Source of the DNA: Anaerolineae bacterium
GTDB lineage: Bacteria > Chloroflexota > Anaerolineae > UBA3071
DNA length: 64,000 nt
Direction: 5' to 3'
Assembly: GCA_029907105.1 (NCBI GenBank)
Contig: JARYMM010000001.1
Coordinates: 1-64,000 of the forward strand
Shown: positions 8,036 to 34,757 of the stretch, piece after piece
How the letters are laid out: the number at the start of each line of letters is the position of its first letter
Position numbering within the stretch: the first letter of the stretch is position 1
Translations under genes and position numbers: made by a program
Notes under the pieces: model-generated
Databases searched by the model: none
What the model saw: the letters and a program-made list of their open reading frames with translations, nothing else
What the model was told of the DNA's origin: nothing

Positions 8036-9250
8036 GTCCAGGCTGAGCAGATAGAGCAGGTCGTCGGCGGTGTGGGAGCCGCGCACGCGGATGCGCAGCA
8101 GCTCGAAGGGCCGGTCGGAGGACTGGCGCAGGCCCTGATGGCTGGTCAGGCCGCCCCAGTAGTGGGCGGAGTGGAACACGGCTATCGTCTGCTGGTCGTA
8201 GCCGCCGGAGGGGTAGGAGACGAAGCGGGGATGAAAGCCCAGTTCCAGTTCGATGGATTCCTTGCACCCCAGCGCCTGCCACACCAGATAGTCCACCGAT
8301 TGGCCGCGCAAATCGGGATGATTGCGGCTGTGGCAGCCGATCTCCATGCCCGCGGCGGCCATTTCCCGCAATTGGTCCCAGGAGACGTACTCTGGCCGCT
8401 GCTCGTTGACGAAGTCGGTGATCACGAAGAAGGCGGCAGTGAAGCCGTACTCCCGCAGCAGGGGGAAGGCGTTGACGTAGGCATCGGCGTAGCCGTCGTC
8501 TATGGTGATGATGATGGGCTTGTCCGGCAGCGGCTGGCCACGCATCAGGTGGTCGAACAGTGCGCGCAGGGTGATGCTCTGATAGCCGGCCTGGCGCAGG
8601 GCCTGCAGGTGGCTGGCGAACAGTTGCGGCGGCACGGAGAGGTCACGGCGAACAGCGTCGGCCCCCGGCGGCGGCGTGGAGATGTAGTGATACATCAGGA
8701 TGGGCACCTCCACCTCTCGCAGTACGCCGTCGGGTGTCGGCCCAGGCGTGGGAGTGGCAGTGGCTGTGGGGGTAGGAGAAGACGTGGCTGTCGGCGTGGC
8801 TGTCGGCGTGGGCGTCTCCGTGGGGGTGAGTGTGGGCGTGGGCGTCTCCGTGGGCGTGGCCGTCGGCGACGGCGTGGGCGACGGTGTGAGCGATGGTGCG
8901 GGCGATGGCGTCGGCGACGGCGTGGCCGTGGGCAGGGACGCCTTGTCCGTCGCCGTCGCTGTGGGGGTGGGGGAGGAGGGCAAGGCCGTGGCCGGTGGCA
9001 GCGTCACCGCGGGCGATGGGGCGTCGTCCACAGGATTGGCGACAAGGGCCTCAGGGGAAAGCTGGAACAGAGCTGGGTTCCAGCCGCTGCAGGCTACCGC
9101 GCTGATGAAGATGAGCGACAGTATCAGCGAAAGGAGATTCGCTCTGAGGGGACCGCCAGATCCCCGATTTTCGCCAGGATCTGACGATCCTGGCGGAGCG
9201 GTTTTCCATCTACCGAGTATGAGTGCCCAGAAACGTGTGTGATGTGTCAC
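8030..9250 (-). CDS. Polysaccharide deacetylase (NodB domain) lipoprotein
   Basis: A secreted, lipid-anchored carbohydrate esterase. A hydrophobic segment ending in FISAVAC gives a lipobox, followed by about 90 residues of Thr/Pro/Ser linker and a C-terminal NodB domain with the metal motif ITIDDGYADAY and the HSRNHPDL His pair. The only reasonable start is GTG 9250. This puts a 78-bp dispersed palindromic repeat inside the coding sequence between the start and the signal segment, adding about 26 odd residues. A consensus promoter ends just upstream of the GTG, so translation may be nearly leaderless. Last gene of the envelope operon. Confidence 0.82.
   Translation of the reverse strand: MTHHTRFWALILGRWKTAPPGSSDPGENRGSGGPLRANLLSLILSLIFISAVACSGWNPALFQLSPEALVANPVDDAPSPAVTLPPATALPSSPTPTATATDKASLPTATPSPTPSPAPSLTPSPTPSPTATPTETPTPTLTPTETPTPTATPTATSSPTPTATATPTPGPTPDGVLREVEVPILMYHYISTPPPGADAVRRDLSVPPQLFASHLQALRQAGYQSITLRALFDHLMRGQPLPDKPIIITIDDGYADAYVNAFPLLREYGFTAAFFVITDFVNEQRPEYVSWDQLREMAAAGMEIGCHSRNHPDLRGQSVDYLVWQALGCKESIELELGFHPRFVSYPSGGYDQQTIAVFHSAHYWGGLTSHQGLRQSSDRPFELLRIRVRGSHTADDLLYLLSLDW
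9136..9213 (-). repeat. 78-bp dispersed palindromic repeat, copy 1
   Basis: Nearly the same 78 bp occurs in inverted orientation at 50521-50599 (about 90% identical by eye). It contains two nested palindromes, one around CAGATCCCCG and one CGCCAGGATC..GATCCTGGCG. This copy lies within the 5' coding part of the deacetylase lipoprotein gene; the other is intergenic. Confidence 0.8.
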
Positions 9251-11427: not shown

Positions 11428-11446
11428 AGGTGTTGGCTGTTATCAG

Positions 11447-11481
11447 AGTTACGTTTTACGTGTTACGTGTTGCGTGTGGCG
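11447..11481. repeat. Heptamer array, consensus TGTTACG (5 units)
   Basis: Five consecutive 7-bp units: AGTTACG, TTTTACG, TGTTACG, TGTTGCG, TGTGGCG. It overlaps the last codons of the rfbD-like gene, whose C-terminal TPHATRNT is encoded by the array. Confidence 0.85.
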
Positions 11482-12370
11482 TGAAGTACTCGCGCAGTGC
11501 ATCCTTCCATGGCCTGAGGGTGATGCCCAGCTCCGCTCCCGCCGTGTTGGCCAGCACAGCCCGCCGTGGCGGCGTGGCGGCCCGCGGCCATTCGCTGGAG
11601 GGGATGGGGGTGACCGGCACGTGCCCGCGGCCGGCCAGCCGCAGGATTTGGCAGGCGAATTCGTAGCGGGAGCAGAAACCGGCGTTGGTGAAGTGGTAGA
11701 TGCCGTAGTGCCCCGTCTCAATGAGCCGGGCCATGGCCGCCGCCGCGTCCGGGGCATAGGTGGGATTGCCGAACTCATCGTCCACCACGCGCAAGGCACC
11801 GTGCCGGTCGGCGGCGGCGATGATCTTGGTCACGAAATTATGGCCGCCGGGAGCGAAAAGCCAGGCCACGCGCACGATGTAGAAGCGCGATAGCAAAGCC
11901 TGTACCACCCGTTCGCCGGCGGCCTTGCTGCGGGCGTAAACGCTGATGGGGTTGGGCCTGTCCCATTCCCGGTAGGGCTCCTCGGCCGTGCCGTCGAAGA
12001 CCTCGTTGGTGCTGACGTAGAGCATGGCCGCTCCGCACCGCTGGCAGGCCAGGGCCACGTTCTGCGTGCCCCAGACGTTGACGCGGTAGGCGGCGTCCGG
12101 TTCGCGCTCCGCTCCGTCCACATCCGTGTAAGCCGCCGGATGGAGGACCACGTCCGGCTGAAAGTCGGCGATGACAGGAATGATGGCCGGATCGGTGATG
12201 TCGCCTTCGGGCAGGTCGAGCAGCAGCAGCGTGCGATCGGCCAGCGCCTCCCGCAGCGCCCGGCCGAGTTGACCCAGGCACCCGGTGATCACAATCCGGC
12301 CCGATTTTGTGCTTTGTGTTTTGAGCTTTGAGCTTTGAACTTTGGACTTTGAGCTTTGAACTTTCCTCAT
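11456..12370 (-). CDS. dTDP-4-dehydrorhamnose reductase-like (RfbD family)
   Basis: 304 residues, SDR fold. GCLGQLGRALREAL binds NAD(P)H, STNEVFDG and the YARSK motif supply the catalytic Thr/Tyr/Lys, and WLFAPGGHNFVTK is typical of RfbD. It would make the last step of dTDP-L-rhamnose synthesis, though no rfbA/B/C is nearby. The ATG overlaps the upstream SGNH gene (ATGA), which fixes the start. Residues 3-22 are a translated heptamer array giving the peptide repeats KVQSSKS, KVQSSKL and KTQSTKS ahead of the Rossmann fold. The C-terminal tail is also array-encoded. Confidence 0.87.
   Translation of the reverse strand: MRKVQSSKSKVQSSKLKTQSTKSGRIVITGCLGQLGRALREALADRTLLLLDLPEGDITDPAIIPVIADFQPDVVLHPAAYTDVDGAEREPDAAYRVNVWGTQNVALACQRCGAAMLYVSTNEVFDGTAEEPYREWDRPNPISVYARSKAAGERVVQALLSRFYIVRVAWLFAPGGHNFVTKIIAAADRHGALRVVDDEFGNPTYAPDAAAAMARLIETGHYGIYHFTNAGFCSRYEFACQILRLAGRGHVPVTPIPSSEWPRAATPPRRAVLANTAGAELGITLRPWKDALREYFTPHATRNT
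12309..12364. repeat. Heptamer array, consensus GAGCTTT (8 units)
   Basis: Eight perfect-register 7-bp units (GTGCTTT, GTGTTTT, GAGCTTT twice, GAACTTT, GGACTTT, GAGCTTT, GAACTTT). It lies wholly inside the 5' coding end of the rfbD-like gene; because 21 bp equals three units, the protein shows a seven-residue repeat. Confidence 0.92.
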
Positions 12371-13299
12371 GGTTGCTTCAGCAGTGCCAGTGTGCCATCC
12401 TGCTCCAGAGCGGCGAGGACGATAGCCGCCAGCCGCTCCTGCCCGGCGGCGGTGAGGTGGATGCCATCGTCATCCAGCAAGCCCTCCAGGTCGCTGCCGG
12501 CAAAGCCGGCCTCGACGTCAATCAGCCCCACGCCCAACGCCGCTGCCGTTTCCCGGATGAGCTTATTGTACTGACGGTAGGCCGCCATTTGCAACGTTTG
12601 TACTTCCGGCGGCCAGCAGGCATGAGCCCACTCGCCCACCGGCGTCATGGTGAGCAGGGTGATGTGCGGCACGCCTGAGCGGCGGGCGGTGTGGACCATC
12701 CGTTGCAGGGCAGCAGCGAAGGCCTCCGGGCTGACCTGGGGCTGTAGGGCGTTGCCGGCGTGGGTGTCCCAGGGGTCTGCCGCGCCGAGGAGGTGTCGCC
12801 GCAGCGCCCGGTAGAGCCGCGATGCCCCCAGCGGCCCCCAGTACAACTCGGGGAAGGTCTCCGCCTCCCGCCAGACATCCGCCGCCGAGCGGGCCAGATA
12901 GCAGTCGTTCAGGCCGAAGGCGATGAACAGGGCGTGCGGCCGGAAGCGCAGCGCGTCTCGTTCCAGCCGGGCCAGCCCTTGCACCGCCGTCTCGCCGCAG
13001 ATGCCGCTTGGGATCACCCTCCAGGGGACGTCAGGGTGCTGTTCCCTCAGACGTTGTTCCAACCGGGCTGGCCAGGCGGCTGTGGCGGGCACGATATGGC
13101 CGTGGACGATGGAATCGCCCAGGGCAACCAGGCGAATCTCGTTTTTCATGCTCGACCAATCCAGTGCGGCGGTGAGGGGCGGCAAGCCCGCAGGTGGCGT
13201 GGCCAGTGCCGGCTGCCGCCACAGCCGCAGCCACATCTCCCCGCCGATCAGGAGAACCCCCACCAGCAATATGGCCCCGAGGATGGCTCTCAGCCACAC
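12367..13299 (-). CDS. SGNH/GDSL hydrolase, membrane-anchored
   Basis: 310 residues. One N-terminal membrane helix (AILLVGVLLIGGEMW) precedes an SGNH esterase domain: block I VALGDSIVHG (nucleophile Ser), block II Gly in PSGICGETA, block III FGLNDCY, and block V DDDGIHLTAAG (Asp-His). It probably removes acyl groups from an extracytoplasmic glycan. I choose GTG 13299 because GGGAGG lies 5 nt upstream; the ATG 21 nt further out overlaps the predicted -10. It is the first gene of the minus-strand envelope operon. Confidence 0.85.
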   Translation of the reverse strand: MWLRAILGAILLVGVLLIGGEMWLRLWRQPALATPPAGLPPLTAALDWSSMKNEIRLVALGDSIVHGHIVPATAAWPARLEQRLREQHPDVPWRVIPSGICGETAVQGLARLERDALRFRPHALFIAFGLNDCYLARSAADVWREAETFPELYWGPLGASRLYRALRRHLLGAADPWDTHAGNALQPQVSPEAFAAALQRMVHTARRSGVPHITLLTMTPVGEWAHACWPPEVQTLQMAAYRQYNKLIRETAAALGVGLIDVEAGFAGSDLEGLLDDDGIHLTAAGQERLAAIVLAALEQDGTLALLKQP

Positions 13300-13318
13300 G
13301 TCTGCCTCCCGGCGGCCC

Positions 13319-13347
13319 ATTGTAGCACCGATTCGCCCGGCAGGCAA
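13319..13347 (-). promoter_or_regulatory. Promoter of the envelope operon
   Basis: Minus strand: TTGCCT (13347-13342), 17-bp spacer, TACAAT (13324-13319). Transcription would begin about 13 nt before the GTG at 13299. It serves SGNH hydrolase, rfbD-like, GT2 and MFS genes. Confidence 0.65.
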
Positions 13348-19205: not shown

Positions 19206-19240
19206 AAGGGACCCGGAATCGCCAGAAAACCGGGTCCCTT
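19206..19240. terminator. Hairpin between convergent genes
   Basis: An 11-bp perfect stem (AAGGGACCCGG / CCGGGTCCCTT) with a 13-nt loop lies 10 bp after the LysM stop. It probably ends both the LysM transcript and the convergent SIMPL transcript. Confidence 0.75.
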
Positions 19241-21710: not shown

Positions 21711-22649
21711 TCAGCGTCCCCCCATGCCCGAGAGCGTGATCCCCTGGACGAACCAGCGCTGGGCCAGGACGTAGACGAGCAACACGGGCAGCAAGGCGAT
21801 CACTGCGCCGGCCATCAGCAGATGCCATTGCACGTTGTACTGTCCCTGGAAGGCGCTGAGGCCGACAGGCAGGGTGCGCATCTTCAGCGATGTGGTGATG
21901 ACCAGCGGCCACAGGAAGTCGTTCCAGGAGCCGAGAAAGGTGAAGATGGCCAGAGCGGCAATGGCCGGCCCGCTGAGGGGCAGGATCACCTGCCACCAGA
22001 TGCGGAACGACGAGGTGCCATCCATACGGGCGGCCTCGTCCAGTTCCCTGGGAATGCCCAGGAAGTATTGGCGCAGCAGGAACACGGCAAAGGCCGAAAA
22101 GGCCGGGGGCAGGATCAACGCCTGATAGGTGTCGTACCATCCCAGGTAGCGGACGATGATGAAGTTGGGGATCATCGTCACCTGGAAGGGGATCATCAGC
22201 GTGGCCAGGTAGAGGAGGAACAGCGGCTCGCGCCCGCGGAAGCGCAGTCGGGCGAAAGCAAAAGCGGCCAGCGATGAGGTCAGGATCTGCAGGAAGGTCA
22301 CGCTGACGGCGACGATGCCGCTGTTGAGGTAGAAACGGCCAAAGGGCATGGCCGACACGGCGGCGGCATAGTTTTCCCAGGCCACCGGTTTCGGAATCCA
22401 GGTGGGCGGGAAGGTGAAAATCTCCCTGGGCGTCTTCAGCGAGGTGCTGAGCATCCAGAAGAGAGGCAACAGCATCAGCACGCTGCCGGCAATCAGGATG
22501 GCATGCAGCAGGAGATGGCCGACGCGGGAGTTCCGGGTTCGGGGTTCCAGGTTCCGAGTTGTCGTCTGAAGACGCCGAACGCCGAACACCAAACCCCGAA
22601 CGCCGAACCCCAAACGCCGAACGCCAAACGCCGAACGCTGAGGCATCAT
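21711..22649 (-). CDS. ABC sugar transporter permease (MalG type)
   Basis: 312 residues with six membrane helices and the EAA loop for ATPase docking (DEAARMDGTSSFRIWWQVILP). The family is the inner component of carbohydrate importers. The start is the ATG overlapping the upstream permease stop (ATGA at 22649-22646); the longer open frame would overlap that gene by 120 bp. Residues 6-40 are unusual: SAFGVRR, LGFGVRG, LVFGVRR, LQTTTRN, LEPRTRN is a seven-residue repeat produced by translation of a heptamer DNA array, ahead of the first membrane helix. No ATPase gene is in the operon; a shared MsmK-type ATPase is likely. Confidence 0.87.
   Translation of the reverse strand: MMPQRSAFGVRRLGFGVRGLVFGVRRLQTTTRNLEPRTRNSRVGHLLLHAILIAGSVLMLLPLFWMLSTSLKTPREIFTFPPTWIPKPVAWENYAAAVSAMPFGRFYLNSGIVAVSVTFLQILTSSLAAFAFARLRFRGREPLFLLYLATLMIPFQVTMIPNFIIVRYLGWYDTYQALILPPAFSAFAVFLLRQYFLGIPRELDEAARMDGTSSFRIWWQVILPLSGPAIAALAIFTFLGSWNDFLWPLVITTSLKMRTLPVGLSAFQGQYNVQWHLLMAGAVIALLPVLLVYVLAQRWFVQGITLSGMGGR
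22528..22636. repeat. Double heptamer array, GGGTTCC and GCCGAAC (5 + 9 units)
   Basis: Five units of GGGTTCC type (22528-22562), a short break, then nine of GCCGAAC type in exact 7-bp register (22574-22636). The first half is roughly complementary to the second, so a hairpin is possible. The array lies inside the 5' coding end of the MalG-type permease gene. Confidence 0.92.
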
Positions 22650-31196: not shown

Positions 31197-31326
31197 GCGG
31201 TTCCATCTCCAGCCAATTCTCCCCCACCTTTAGGTCCACCTTCAGCGGCGCATCCAGCTTGAAGGCCTCCTCCATCAGCCGCTTGACCAGCGGGGCGACG
31301 GTGGCCAGCAGGCCGGGCAGTTCTAC
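31197..31326 (-). repeat. Detached copy of the polA 3' end
   Basis: About 115 bp match the 3' end of polA (32014-32128) with two or three mismatches and one 12-bp insertion. It still encodes the polymerase C-terminus (KRLMEEAFKLDAPLKV, ending WLEMEPL and a stop) but is separated from polA by the toxin-antitoxin pair. The left edge abuts the nucleotidyltransferase remnant and the right edge meets the PIN stop codon. Confidence 0.92.
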
Positions 31327-32006: not shown

Positions 32007-34757
32007 CTAGCAGGGTTCCATCTCCAGCCAATTCTCCCCCACCTTTAGCTCCACCTTCAGCGGCGCATCCAGCTTGAAGGCCTCCTCCATCAGCCGCTTG
32101 GCCAGCGGGGCGACGGCGGGCAGTTCCTCATTGGGCACCTCCAGCACCAGTTCGTCGTGCACCTGCAAGATCATGCGGCTGTGCAGGCCGCGCTCCTGCA
32201 GCGCCTGGTGCAGGCGGATCATGGCAATCTTAATGATGTCGGCGGCCGTGCCCTGAATGGGCATGTTGATCGCTGCCCGTTCGGCGGCCTGGCGCACGTT
32301 GTTGTGGGCCTTGCTGCGCAGGCCGAGTTCCGGGAAGTAGCGCCGCCGTCCCAACAGCGTTTCCACGTACCCTTGCTGGCGCGCCTGCGCTCGCGTGCGG
32401 TCCACGTACTCTTTCACCTTCGGGTAGGTGGCGAAGTAGGTGCGGATGAACTGCGTCGCCTCCTCCTGGGACATGCCCGTCTGCTGTGACAGCCCATAGG
32501 GGCCCTGGCCGTACATGATGCCGAAGTTGACGCCTTTGGCAATGCGGCGCATCTCCGGCGTCACCTGGTCCAGCGGCACGCCGAGCACGGCGGCGGCAGT
32601 GCTGGCGTGGATGTCCTCGCCGCGGCGAAAGGCCGCCAGCAACCCCGGGTCCTGCGAGATGTGGGCCATGACGCGCAGCTCCACCTGCGAGTAGTCAGCG
32701 GACAGGAGCTTCCAACCCGGCTGAGCTACGAATGCTCGCCGGATCTGCCGTCCCAGCTCTGTGCGGATGGGGATGTTCTGCAGGTTGGGGTTCGACGAGG
32801 AAAGTCGCCCGGTGACCGTCCCTGTCTGGTTATAGGAGGTGTGCACCCGCCCCGTGCGCGGATTGACCAACTCCACCAGGGCATCCACGTAGGTGGACTT
32901 GAGCTTGGATAGCTCTCGCTGCTCCAGGAGGAGGTCAATGACCGGATGTTTCCCCCGCAGCCCCTGCAGCACGTTCGCTGACGTGGAGTAATGCCCTGAA
33001 CTGGTCTTCGGCACCCCCTGACGAGGCAGTTGTAGCCTGTCGAAGAGGGCTTCGGAAAGCTGCTGCGTGGAGTTGATGTTGAAGGGATAGCCAACCTGGG
33101 CATGAATCTCCTTTTCCAACTCAACCAGCCGTGCCGCCAGCGTCTTCGACATTTGTTGCAGGTAGCGCACGTCCAGGGCCACGCCGGCCTGCTGCATAGC
33201 TACCAGTACCGGCACCAGCGGCATCTCCACCTCCTGGAAGAGGCGCAGCACCCCCCTGGCCTCCAGTTCCGGACGCAACACTCCCACCAGCCGCCAGGTC
33301 ATGTCCACATCGGCAGCGGCATAGGAGGCAGCTTTGCCCAGAGGCACCTGGGCCATGGTGATCTGCCTGCTGCCCGTGCCGATCAGTTGGCTGATGGAAG
33401 TCATCTCCGCGCCCAGGCGGGCGAAGGCCAGGTTCTTGAGCCCCAGGTTGCGGCTGGCCGGGTCGAGCAGCCATTCGGCGATCATGGTGTCAAACAATTC
33501 TCCCTGCACGGTGACGCCGTAGCGGGCCAGCACGGTCAGGTCGTACTCGCCGTTATGTGCCGCCTTGGGCATGGAGGCATCCGCCAGCAGCGGCTTGAGC
33601 CGGGCCAGCACCACCTCCAGCGGCAACTGCTCTGCCCCGGCGTGGCCCAGAGGGATGTAGGCGGCCTGCCCCTCGCCCCAGGCCAGGGCCAATCCTACCA
33701 GGTCGGCGAGCATGGGGTCGGTGCTGGTGGTTTCCACGTCGAAGGCGACCAGCTTGCTGGCCTGCAACAGGCGAAGCTGTTCGTCCAGTTCAGCCTGGGT
33801 AGTGATGACTTGATATTGGGTACCGGATATTGGAGCTCTCTGCGCTTCGGCGGCCTCGGCAAACAGGGGCAGTTGCTCCCCTTGTGTCGGGGGTGCCGGC
33901 GGAGTCAGCCGCTCCAGCAGGGTGCGGAACTCCAGCTCGCGGAAAAGCTCGGCCACCCGCTGGCGGTCGAACTCTTTCACACGGCAGCTTTCCAGGTCGA
34001 GGTCAATGTTCACATCTCGGACGATGGACGCCAGTTGTTTGGACAGCAAGGCCAGATCCCTGTTCCCCTCCAGGGCGCTGCGGGCGCGGCCCGTGATCTC
34101 GTCCAGGTGCTGATAGATCCCCTCCACGCTGCCGTAGGTCTGCAACAACTCCGTAGCGGTCTTCTCTCCCACGCCTCGCACGCCAGGGATGTTGTCGGAT
34201 TTGTCGCCGGTGAGAGCTTTGTAGTCAATGAGTTGTTGTGGCCGCAGGCCATAGCGGGCCTGGATCCCTGCCTCGTCGTAGACGACGGTATCGCTGAAGC
34301 TGCGGCGAGAGGTGAGCACGCGGGTGTGGCGGTCAACGAGCTGGAAGGCGTCGGTATCGCCGGTGACCAGCAGGGTCTCCACGCCACGCGCCGCGGCCTG
34401 CCGGCTGAGGGTGCCCAGCACGTCGTCGGCCTCGTAGCCTTCTACCTCGAAGATGGGGATGTTGAACGCCTCTACCACCTGGCGAATGCGGGCCATCTGC
34501 GTGCGCAGCTCGTCGGGCATGGCGGCTCGATGGGCCTTGTATTCTGGATACTGTTCGTGGCGGAACGTGCGGCCCACATCAAAGGCCACAGCGATGTAAT
34601 CGGGCTTTTCGTCGCGCAGCACATTGAGCAGCATGGAGGTGAAGCCGAAGACCGCGTTGGTCAGTTCGCCCTGGCTTGTGGCCAGGGTGGCGGGCAGGGC
34701 ATGGAAGGCTCGATAGGCCAGGCTATGACCGTCAATGAGCACCAGTTTCTTGGACAT
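32007..34757 (-). CDS. polA: DNA polymerase I
   Basis: 916 residues in the standard order: 5'-3' exonuclease (1-290, LIDGHSLAYRAFHALP, VAFDVGRTFRHE, VTGDTDAFQLV), 3'-5' exonuclease (about 335-510) and polymerase (530-916). In the proofreading domain the metal ligands look intact (FDVETTSTDP, AHNGEYDL, YAAADVD). The polymerase motifs are present (DYSQVELRVMAH, RRIAKGVNFGIMYG, VHDELVLEVP). The end of the gene (32014-32128) is duplicated at 31197-31326; the present C-terminus ends MEPC, the detached copy MEPL. Confidence 0.95.
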   Translation of the reverse strand: MSKKLVLIDGHSLAYRAFHALPATLATSQGELTNAVFGFTSMLLNVLRDEKPDYIAVAFDVGRTFRHEQYPEYKAHRAAMPDELRTQMARIRQVVEAFNIPIFEVEGYEADDVLGTLSRQAAARGVETLLVTGDTDAFQLVDRHTRVLTSRRSFSDTVVYDEAGIQARYGLRPQQLIDYKALTGDKSDNIPGVRGVGEKTATELLQTYGSVEGIYQHLDEITGRARSALEGNRDLALLSKQLASIVRDVNIDLDLESCRVKEFDRQRVAELFRELEFRTLLERLTPPAPPTQGEQLPLFAEAAEAQRAPISGTQYQVITTQAELDEQLRLLQASKLVAFDVETTSTDPMLADLVGLALAWGEGQAAYIPLGHAGAEQLPLEVVLARLKPLLADASMPKAAHNGEYDLTVLARYGVTVQGELFDTMIAEWLLDPASRNLGLKNLAFARLGAEMTSISQLIGTGSRQITMAQVPLGKAASYAAADVDMTWRLVGVLRPELEARGVLRLFQEVEMPLVPVLVAMQQAGVALDVRYLQQMSKTLAARLVELEKEIHAQVGYPFNINSTQQLSEALFDRLQLPRQGVPKTSSGHYSTSANVLQGLRGKHPVIDLLLEQRELSKLKSTYVDALVELVNPRTGRVHTSYNQTGTVTGRLSSSNPNLQNIPIRTELGRQIRRAFVAQPGWKLLSADYSQVELRVMAHISQDPGLLAAFRRGEDIHASTAAAVLGVPLDQVTPEMRRIAKGVNFGIMYGQGPYGLSQQTGMSQEEATQFIRTYFATYPKVKEYVDRTRAQARQQGYVETLLGRRRYFPELGLRSKAHNNVRQAAERAAINMPIQGTAADIIKIAMIRLHQALQERGLHSRMILQVHDELVLEVPNEELPAVAPLAKRLMEEAFKLDAPLKVELKVGENWLEMEPC
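32014..32128 (-). repeat. polA 3' end, in-gene copy of the flanking repeat
   Basis: This is the functional copy of the repeat whose detached partner lies at 31197-31326. Together they bracket the PIN toxin-antitoxin pair as direct repeats about 815 bp apart. Confidence 0.9.

What the first reader, a model, noticed from the sequence alone, without database searches (positions are those of the whole stretch)
12309..12364. A heptamer array is translated as the N-terminus of the RfbD-like reductase
The start codon is fixed by an ATGA overlap with the preceding gene, and the array follows immediately. Because 7 is prime to 3, three units encode a seven-residue peptide repeat: KVQSSKS, KVQSSKL, KTQSTKS. 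So non-coding-type repeats have become coding sequence, producing a basic/polar tail of about 20 residues on an otherwise normal enzyme.
Basis: seen in the sequence. Interest (0 to 1): 0.65.

Follow-up and report, generated by a model that had tools for sequence, protein, structure and literature searches.

The report
Translated heptamer repeats tail an enzyme
A seven-base DNA repeat sits just after the start codon of a normal sugar-nucleotide enzyme gene and is read as a floppy 21-residue tail; it is one of many such repeats that this bacterium carries between and inside genes, where they are translated as seven-residue peptide repeats.

Summary
The minus-strand ORF 12370-11456 starts at an ATGA overlap, reads MR, then nine 7-nt units as KVQSSKS-KVQSSKL-KTQSTKS, then an intact RmlD/RfbD enzyme. 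No other ATG/GTG/TTG lies before the first beta-strand. Cutting out all nine units gives MRGRIVITG, close to the family N-terminus. None of 29 homologues from other families of the class has the tail. AlphaFold2 predicts residues 1-21 disordered on a well-folded RmlD core.

The event is not singular. A second heptamer array (11443-11487) supplies the last residues and the stop codon of the same gene, and an ABC permease in the window has the same kind of N-terminal tail. In 864 kb of this genome I found 66 period-7 arrays: about 28 inside ORFs with strong coding signal on both sides, 19 across gene ends, 19 intergenic. Inside genes they form inserts absent from homologues (HisF, RecQ, CCA-adding enzyme, an FGE-type domain).

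Best reading: dispersed heptamer satellites tolerated in proteins where they encode no stop, keep frame and fall at termini, loops or linkers. NeuO is the single-gene precedent for a translated N-terminal heptamer array; phase variation is not supported here. New variant of a known kind.

The parts
11456..12370 (-). RmlD/RfbD-type dTDP-4-dehydrorhamnose reductase-like gene, 304 aa, intact core (residues 25-297)
   Evidence: ORF; PF04321 E=1.1e-82; PDB 1vl0/3sc6 alignment; AF2 pLDDT 91.9 and Foldseek top hits RmlD
12302..12364 (-). heptamer array, nine units of AAAGYYC type, translated as KVQSSKS KVQSSKL KTQSTKS (residues 3-23)
   Evidence: TRF; unit list, chance test, GC 0.36 against 0.68 in the core, coding score -0.5 against +0.92
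12367..12370 (-). ATGA overlap: start codon of the reductase and stop codon of the GDSL gene; no Shine-Dalgarno-like motif seen upstream
   Evidence: sequence
12367..13347 (-). upstream GDSL-type lipase/acylhydrolase gene
   Evidence: PF13472 E=4e-27
11443..11487 (-). second heptamer array (CACGCAA/CACGTAA type) over the 3' end of the same gene; encodes the C-terminal TPHATRNT and supplies the TAA stop
   Evidence: homologues end before these residues; residues 300-304 pLDDT <50
22571..22642 (-). parallel case in the same window: heptamer array just after an ATG, read as repeated RSAFGVR-like heptads at the N-terminus of an ABC permease (gene ends at 21711)
   Evidence: PF00528 match begins only at residue 124, SugB alignment at residue 56

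Best explanation
The array is a member of a dispersed family of short (about 3-19 unit) heptamer satellites in this Anaerolineae/Caldilineae-like Chloroflexota genome. A copy came to lie between codon 2 and the first beta-strand of rfbD. Because 7 is prime to 3, a heptamer array reads as the same cyclic heptapeptide in all three frames, so on a strand without a cyclic stop codon the array itself is open in any frame and only the total insert length must be a multiple of three. Here nine units (63 nt) meet that condition, the AAAGYYC strand has no stop, and the place is a protein terminus, so the enzyme keeps a 21-residue disordered, basic/polar tail with probably little effect on catalysis. 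The same filter explains the many arrays inside other genes. Shown: the array, its frame, the lack of other usual starts, its absence from homologues, the genome-wide distribution. Inferred: actual translation, near-neutrality, and the way the arrays spread.
For: Only start upstream of the core; homologues without the tail; excision of all nine units restores MRGRIVITG and only removal of 3, 6 or 9 units keeps frame; tail coding score negative, low GC; tail predicted disordered; 66 period-7 arrays in 864 kb, six sequence families for 64 of them, about 28 inside genes with positive coding score in one frame on both sides; inserts relative to PDB homologues at the arrays in HisF, RecQ, the CCA-adding enzyme, an FGE-type domain and a lactate-racemase-like protein; another Chloroflexota family (G086) shows 110 arrays/Mb, 15 of 22 inside genes, while G014 shows none in 200 kb.
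Against: No proteomic or ribosome-profiling data. No close relative (same genus) was available to see the empty site directly; the only same-family genome lacks the gene match. The gene predictor used for the genome-wide counts is home-made, and the sampled contigs were chosen among long ones already known to carry arrays or homologues.
Confidence: 0.82

Rival explanations
1. A phase-variable contingency locus as in neuO: slippage of whole heptamers switches the reductase on (unit number divisible by 3) and off.
For: Position right after the start codon, 7-nt unit, nine units, and frame loss when 1, 2, 4 or 5 units are removed are the neuO arrangement (PMC3046976, PMC13001214).
Against: The units are heterogeneous: longest perfect lag-7 run 12 nt, unlike the pure AAGACTC arrays of neuO, so slippage should be rare; arrays of the same kind lie inside housekeeping genes such as hisF and the CCA-adding enzyme, where switching makes little sense.
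Confidence: 0.08
2. The array is a 5' leader or translation-control element and translation begins downstream, at GTG codon 27 or a non-canonical codon.
For: Arrays do lie in leaders of other genes here, for example before a purH-like and a CBS-domain gene, where a normal start with a GGAGG-like motif follows; the simple gene finder preferred the GTG.
Against: GTG codon 27 lies inside beta-strand 1, upstream of the GCLGQLG nucleotide-binding turn; all homologues include the strand. No start codon or Shine-Dalgarno motif lies between the array and the core.
Confidence: 0.07
3. The tail has been kept for a function, such as binding of an anionic polymer or partner, as proposed for the NeuO poly-psi domain.
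For: Tail is basic (6 Lys and 1 Arg in 23 residues) and NeuO activity rises with heptad number (PMC3046976).
Against: Peptide composition follows from the heptamer family; the same AAAGYYC class gives KVQSSK inserts in an unrelated membrane protein (L085:2774-5566); no conservation of the tail.
Confidence: 0.1

Closest known systems
NeuO poly-psi domain, E. coli K1 prophage CUS-3 (PMC3046976, PMC13001214)
   Same: Heptanucleotide array two bases after the start codon; every three units read as one basic heptapeptide (RLKTQDS); tail unresolved in the crystal; frame kept only for multiples of three
   Different: NeuO array is pure, hypervariable and phase-variable, at one locus; here the units are degenerate, the enzyme is unrelated, and arrays of the same kind are dispersed over the genome
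Dispersed heptamer repeats of Nostoc and Xanthomonas (GGGGATT / GGGAATC, PMC4692102) and TAACTGA repeats of Beggiatoaceae and cyanobacteria (PMC4679880)
   Same: Genome-wide heptamer arrays, mostly at gene edges; some intragenic (7-11% in Xanthomonas, about a third in Nostoc)
   Different: Those papers follow one G-rich or stop-containing unit and discuss regulation or G4s; here at least six unit families, no G4-type unit at this locus, and about 40% of arrays inside ORFs, located as inserts in conserved enzymes
Tandem repeats of Borg elements (PMC9879509)
   Same: Tandem repeats in ORFs that create disordered amino-acid repeats
   Different: All Borg repeats in ORFs have units divisible by three and are perfect; here the unit is 7 nt and imperfect, and frame is kept by total length
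Rickettsia palindromic elements (from memory)
   Same: Repetitive DNA inserted in frame in conserved proteins at tolerated sites
   Different: RPEs are palindromes of roughly 100-150 nt, not tandem heptamers

Membership tests
RmlD/RfbD dTDP-4-dehydrorhamnose reductase | RmlD substrate-binding domain / extended SDR fold | tested here: met
   PF04321 277.8 bits; Foldseek top hits RmlD 3sc6, 1vl0
RmlD/RfbD dTDP-4-dehydrorhamnose reductase | GxxGxxG nucleotide-binding turn and YxxxK catalytic pair | tested here: met
   G30, G33, G36, Y145 and K149 invariant in 21 sequences
RmlD/RfbD dTDP-4-dehydrorhamnose reductase | activity on dTDP-4-dehydrorhamnose | not testable with these tools
   no assay; the neighbours are glycosyltransferase, GDSL and MFS genes, not a full rml operon
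NeuO-type phase-variable heptamer locus | heptanucleotide array in frame directly after the start codon, unit number a multiple of three | tested here: met
   nine units after ATGAGG
NeuO-type phase-variable heptamer locus | homogeneous array prone to slippage | tested here: not met
   units differ, longest perfect lag-7 run 12 nt
NeuO-type phase-variable heptamer locus | unit number varies between cells or strains | not testable with these tools
   one genome per species, no reads
Dispersed heptamer satellites (STRR-like) | many arrays of one unit length at unrelated loci of the genome | tested here: met
   66 period-7 arrays in 864 kb, none of period 5 or 11 and one to three of periods 6, 9 and 10; period 8 also present, 35 arrays
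Dispersed heptamer satellites (STRR-like) | limited set of unit sequences | tested here: met
   six clusters hold 64 of 66 arrays

The most novel reading that the evidence does not exclude
In some Chloroflexota families heptamer satellites have spread into coding sequence on a genome scale (an estimated hundred or so genes in this genome by extrapolation), producing lineage-specific heptapeptide inserts in loops, linkers and termini of conserved enzymes; the unit length of seven makes each array frame-neutral, so these genomes run a natural insertion scan of their proteome.
Probability: 0.6. Interest if true: 0.66.

Novelty: new variant of a known kind. Interest (0 to 1): 0.5.

Why it matters
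A translated heptamer array after a start codon is known from neuO. What the follow-up adds is that in this lineage such arrays are common inside ordinary housekeeping genes, although the unit is not divisible by three. That challenges the usual rule that coding tandem repeats have units of 3n, gives an explanation (a heptamer reads as one cyclic heptapeptide in every frame), and offers a source of new disordered protein segments that can be dated and tested by comparing relatives. It also warns annotators that gene starts near such arrays are easily misplaced, as my own gene finder misplaced this one.

Tried and rejected
The reversed-pattern control of the pattern searches is not a clean null: reversed AAAGYYC is CYYGAAA, which is itself another heptamer family here; I relied on period scans instead. 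A first, greedy gene prediction merged genes wrongly and was replaced. Assembly error was considered unlikely because the array is only 63 nt and within a short read, but cannot be excluded without reads. Literature searches for heptamer repeats in Chloroflexota coding regions found nothing directly on it; the 2007 PNAS survey of prokaryotic SSRs is not held. Same-locus comparison within the genus was not possible: no congener is held.

Full report
1. The observation. The minus-strand ORF 12370-11456 begins with ATG overlapping the TGA of a GDSL-lipase gene (ATGA, 12370-12367). After ATGAGG come nine heptamers, the last degenerate, translated as KVQSSKS KVQSSKL KTQSTKS, then GRIVITG. TRF reports the array at 12306-12364 with 84% matches. 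Forty-four of 52 positions agree with the base seven places on; the best of 100 Markov-shuffled windows reached 30. The array has 36% GC against 68% in the rest of the gene, and its hexamer coding score is negative (-0.5 per codon) where the core scores +0.92. So the tail looks like repeat DNA, not like adapted coding sequence.

2. Is it translated? No ATG, GTG or TTG precedes the core other than ATG 12370 and the GTG of codon 27. Codon 27 lies within the first beta-strand, residues 25-29 of the AlphaFold2 model, which every homologue has. Among 29 homologues of 61-74% identity from other families of the class, most place Met at or within a few residues of query residue 24; four of one family (f23) and some others have short extensions, none repetitive. 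Removing all nine units gives MRGRIVITG, close to the family N-terminus; removing one or two units destroys the frame. There is no clear Shine-Dalgarno motif, so expression probably depends on coupling with the GDSL gene (inference). Translation itself has not been measured.

3. The enzyme. Pfam RmlD_sub_bind spans residues 25-297. PDB RmlD sequences align from residue 23-26 onward, and GxxGxxG, Y145 and K149 are invariant. The AlphaFold2 model has mean pLDDT 91.9; residues 1-21 and 300-304 are below 50. Foldseek puts RmlD structures first. The enzyme is ordinary; both ends carry array-derived residues, because a second heptamer array at 11443-11487 encodes TPHATRNT and the TAA stop.

4. The surroundings. 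Other heptamer arrays lie in the window at 19233, 22571, 42630, 42926, 43668 and 52061, mostly at gene edges. The one at 22571-22642 repeats the rfbD arrangement: it follows an ATG and is read as RSAFGVR-like heptads before an ABC permease whose Pfam match starts at residue 124 and whose SugB alignment starts at residue 56.

5. The genome. In the window plus 40 stretches of 20 kb (864 kb, 64% GC), a scan for self-similarity found 66 arrays of period 7 and 35 of period 8, but none of period 5 or 11 and one to three of periods 6, 9 and 10. Six unit families account for 64 of the 66. By a home-made gene prediction with 89% coding density, 28 arrays lie inside genes, 19 cross a gene end and 19 are intergenic. 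This is a strong depletion from coding DNA (28 of 66 against 89% expected, binomial p about 5e-20), yet a large number. For nearly all of the 28, the same reading frame has a strong coding score on both sides and the array a score near or below zero. Pairwise alignments to PDB sequences place the arrays in gaps of the homologue: 18 extra residues in HisF, about 15 in the CCA-adding enzyme, about 50 between the two helicase lobes of RecQ, and inserts in an FGE-type domain and a lactate-racemase-like protein, where period-8-type repeats adjoin.

6. Distribution. Exact AAAGYYC triple units occur in only 9 of 150 relatives, concentrated in this genome's family, f24, f39 and f41. In 200 kb of an f24 genome (G086) I found 22 period-7 arrays, 15 inside genes; in 200 kb of G014 none. 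The f24 rfbD orthologues have no array (L019, L024). Thus the satellites recur in several lineages, but the rfbD copy is local.

7. Mechanism. Because 7 leaves remainder 1 on division by 3, three units span seven codons and every frame gives the same cyclic heptapeptide. A heptamer strand without a cyclic stop is therefore open in all frames; about half of all possible heptamers are open on both strands and a further 37% on one. For an array in a gene only the total insert length and the place decide whether the gene survives. I infer that arrays arise or spread without regard to genes and are filtered by selection: removed where they break genes, kept at termini, loops and linkers. How they spread is unknown; the fixed unit length together with few sequence families argues for both a length-setting process and copying of particular units.

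8. Known relatives. NeuO of E. coli K1 is the direct precedent for the single locus: AAGACTC units two bases after the start codon, read as RLKTQDS heptads, tail disordered. Slippage there switches the gene. Here the units differ from each other (longest perfect lag-7 run 12 nt), so I rate phase variation unlikely. Dispersed heptamers are known from cyanobacteria, Xanthomonas and Beggiatoaceae, with few inside genes except in Nostoc. Borg repeats in genes all have units divisible by three. I found no paper on translated heptamer arrays in Chloroflexota in the held library, which lacks most subscription journals.

9. Limits. Home-made gene prediction; sampled contigs chosen among long ones already seen to carry matches, so densities may be somewhat high; one genome per species; no expression data.

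Noticed in passing
864-kb sample of G000 (window, L069-L108): Besides period 7, 35 arrays of period 8 (GAGACAGG-like and GCCTCGTT-like), 10 of them inside genes; other periods from 5 to 11 are nearly absent.
   Followed up: partly
L082:4123-7392 (minus): RecQ-type helicase with SQVAGHR heptads as an insert of about 50 residues between the two RecA-like lobes.
   Followed up: partly
L089:811-1620 (plus): HisF with an 18-residue array-derived insert after DAKR, in an otherwise very conserved TIM barrel.
   Followed up: partly
L108:2808-2935: Long heptamer array over the stop codon of a large gene; many arrays cross gene 3' ends, where array-encoded stops end the protein.
   Followed up: no
window 8760-8925: 12/18/30-nt GC-rich repeats encoding a TPTPTATPT-type low-complexity linker in a polysaccharide-deacetylase-like protein.
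   Followed up: no
window 31199-31308 and 32014-32123: Two 110-nt direct copies, 96% identical, 815 bp apart near the 5' end of a large gene.
   Followed up: no
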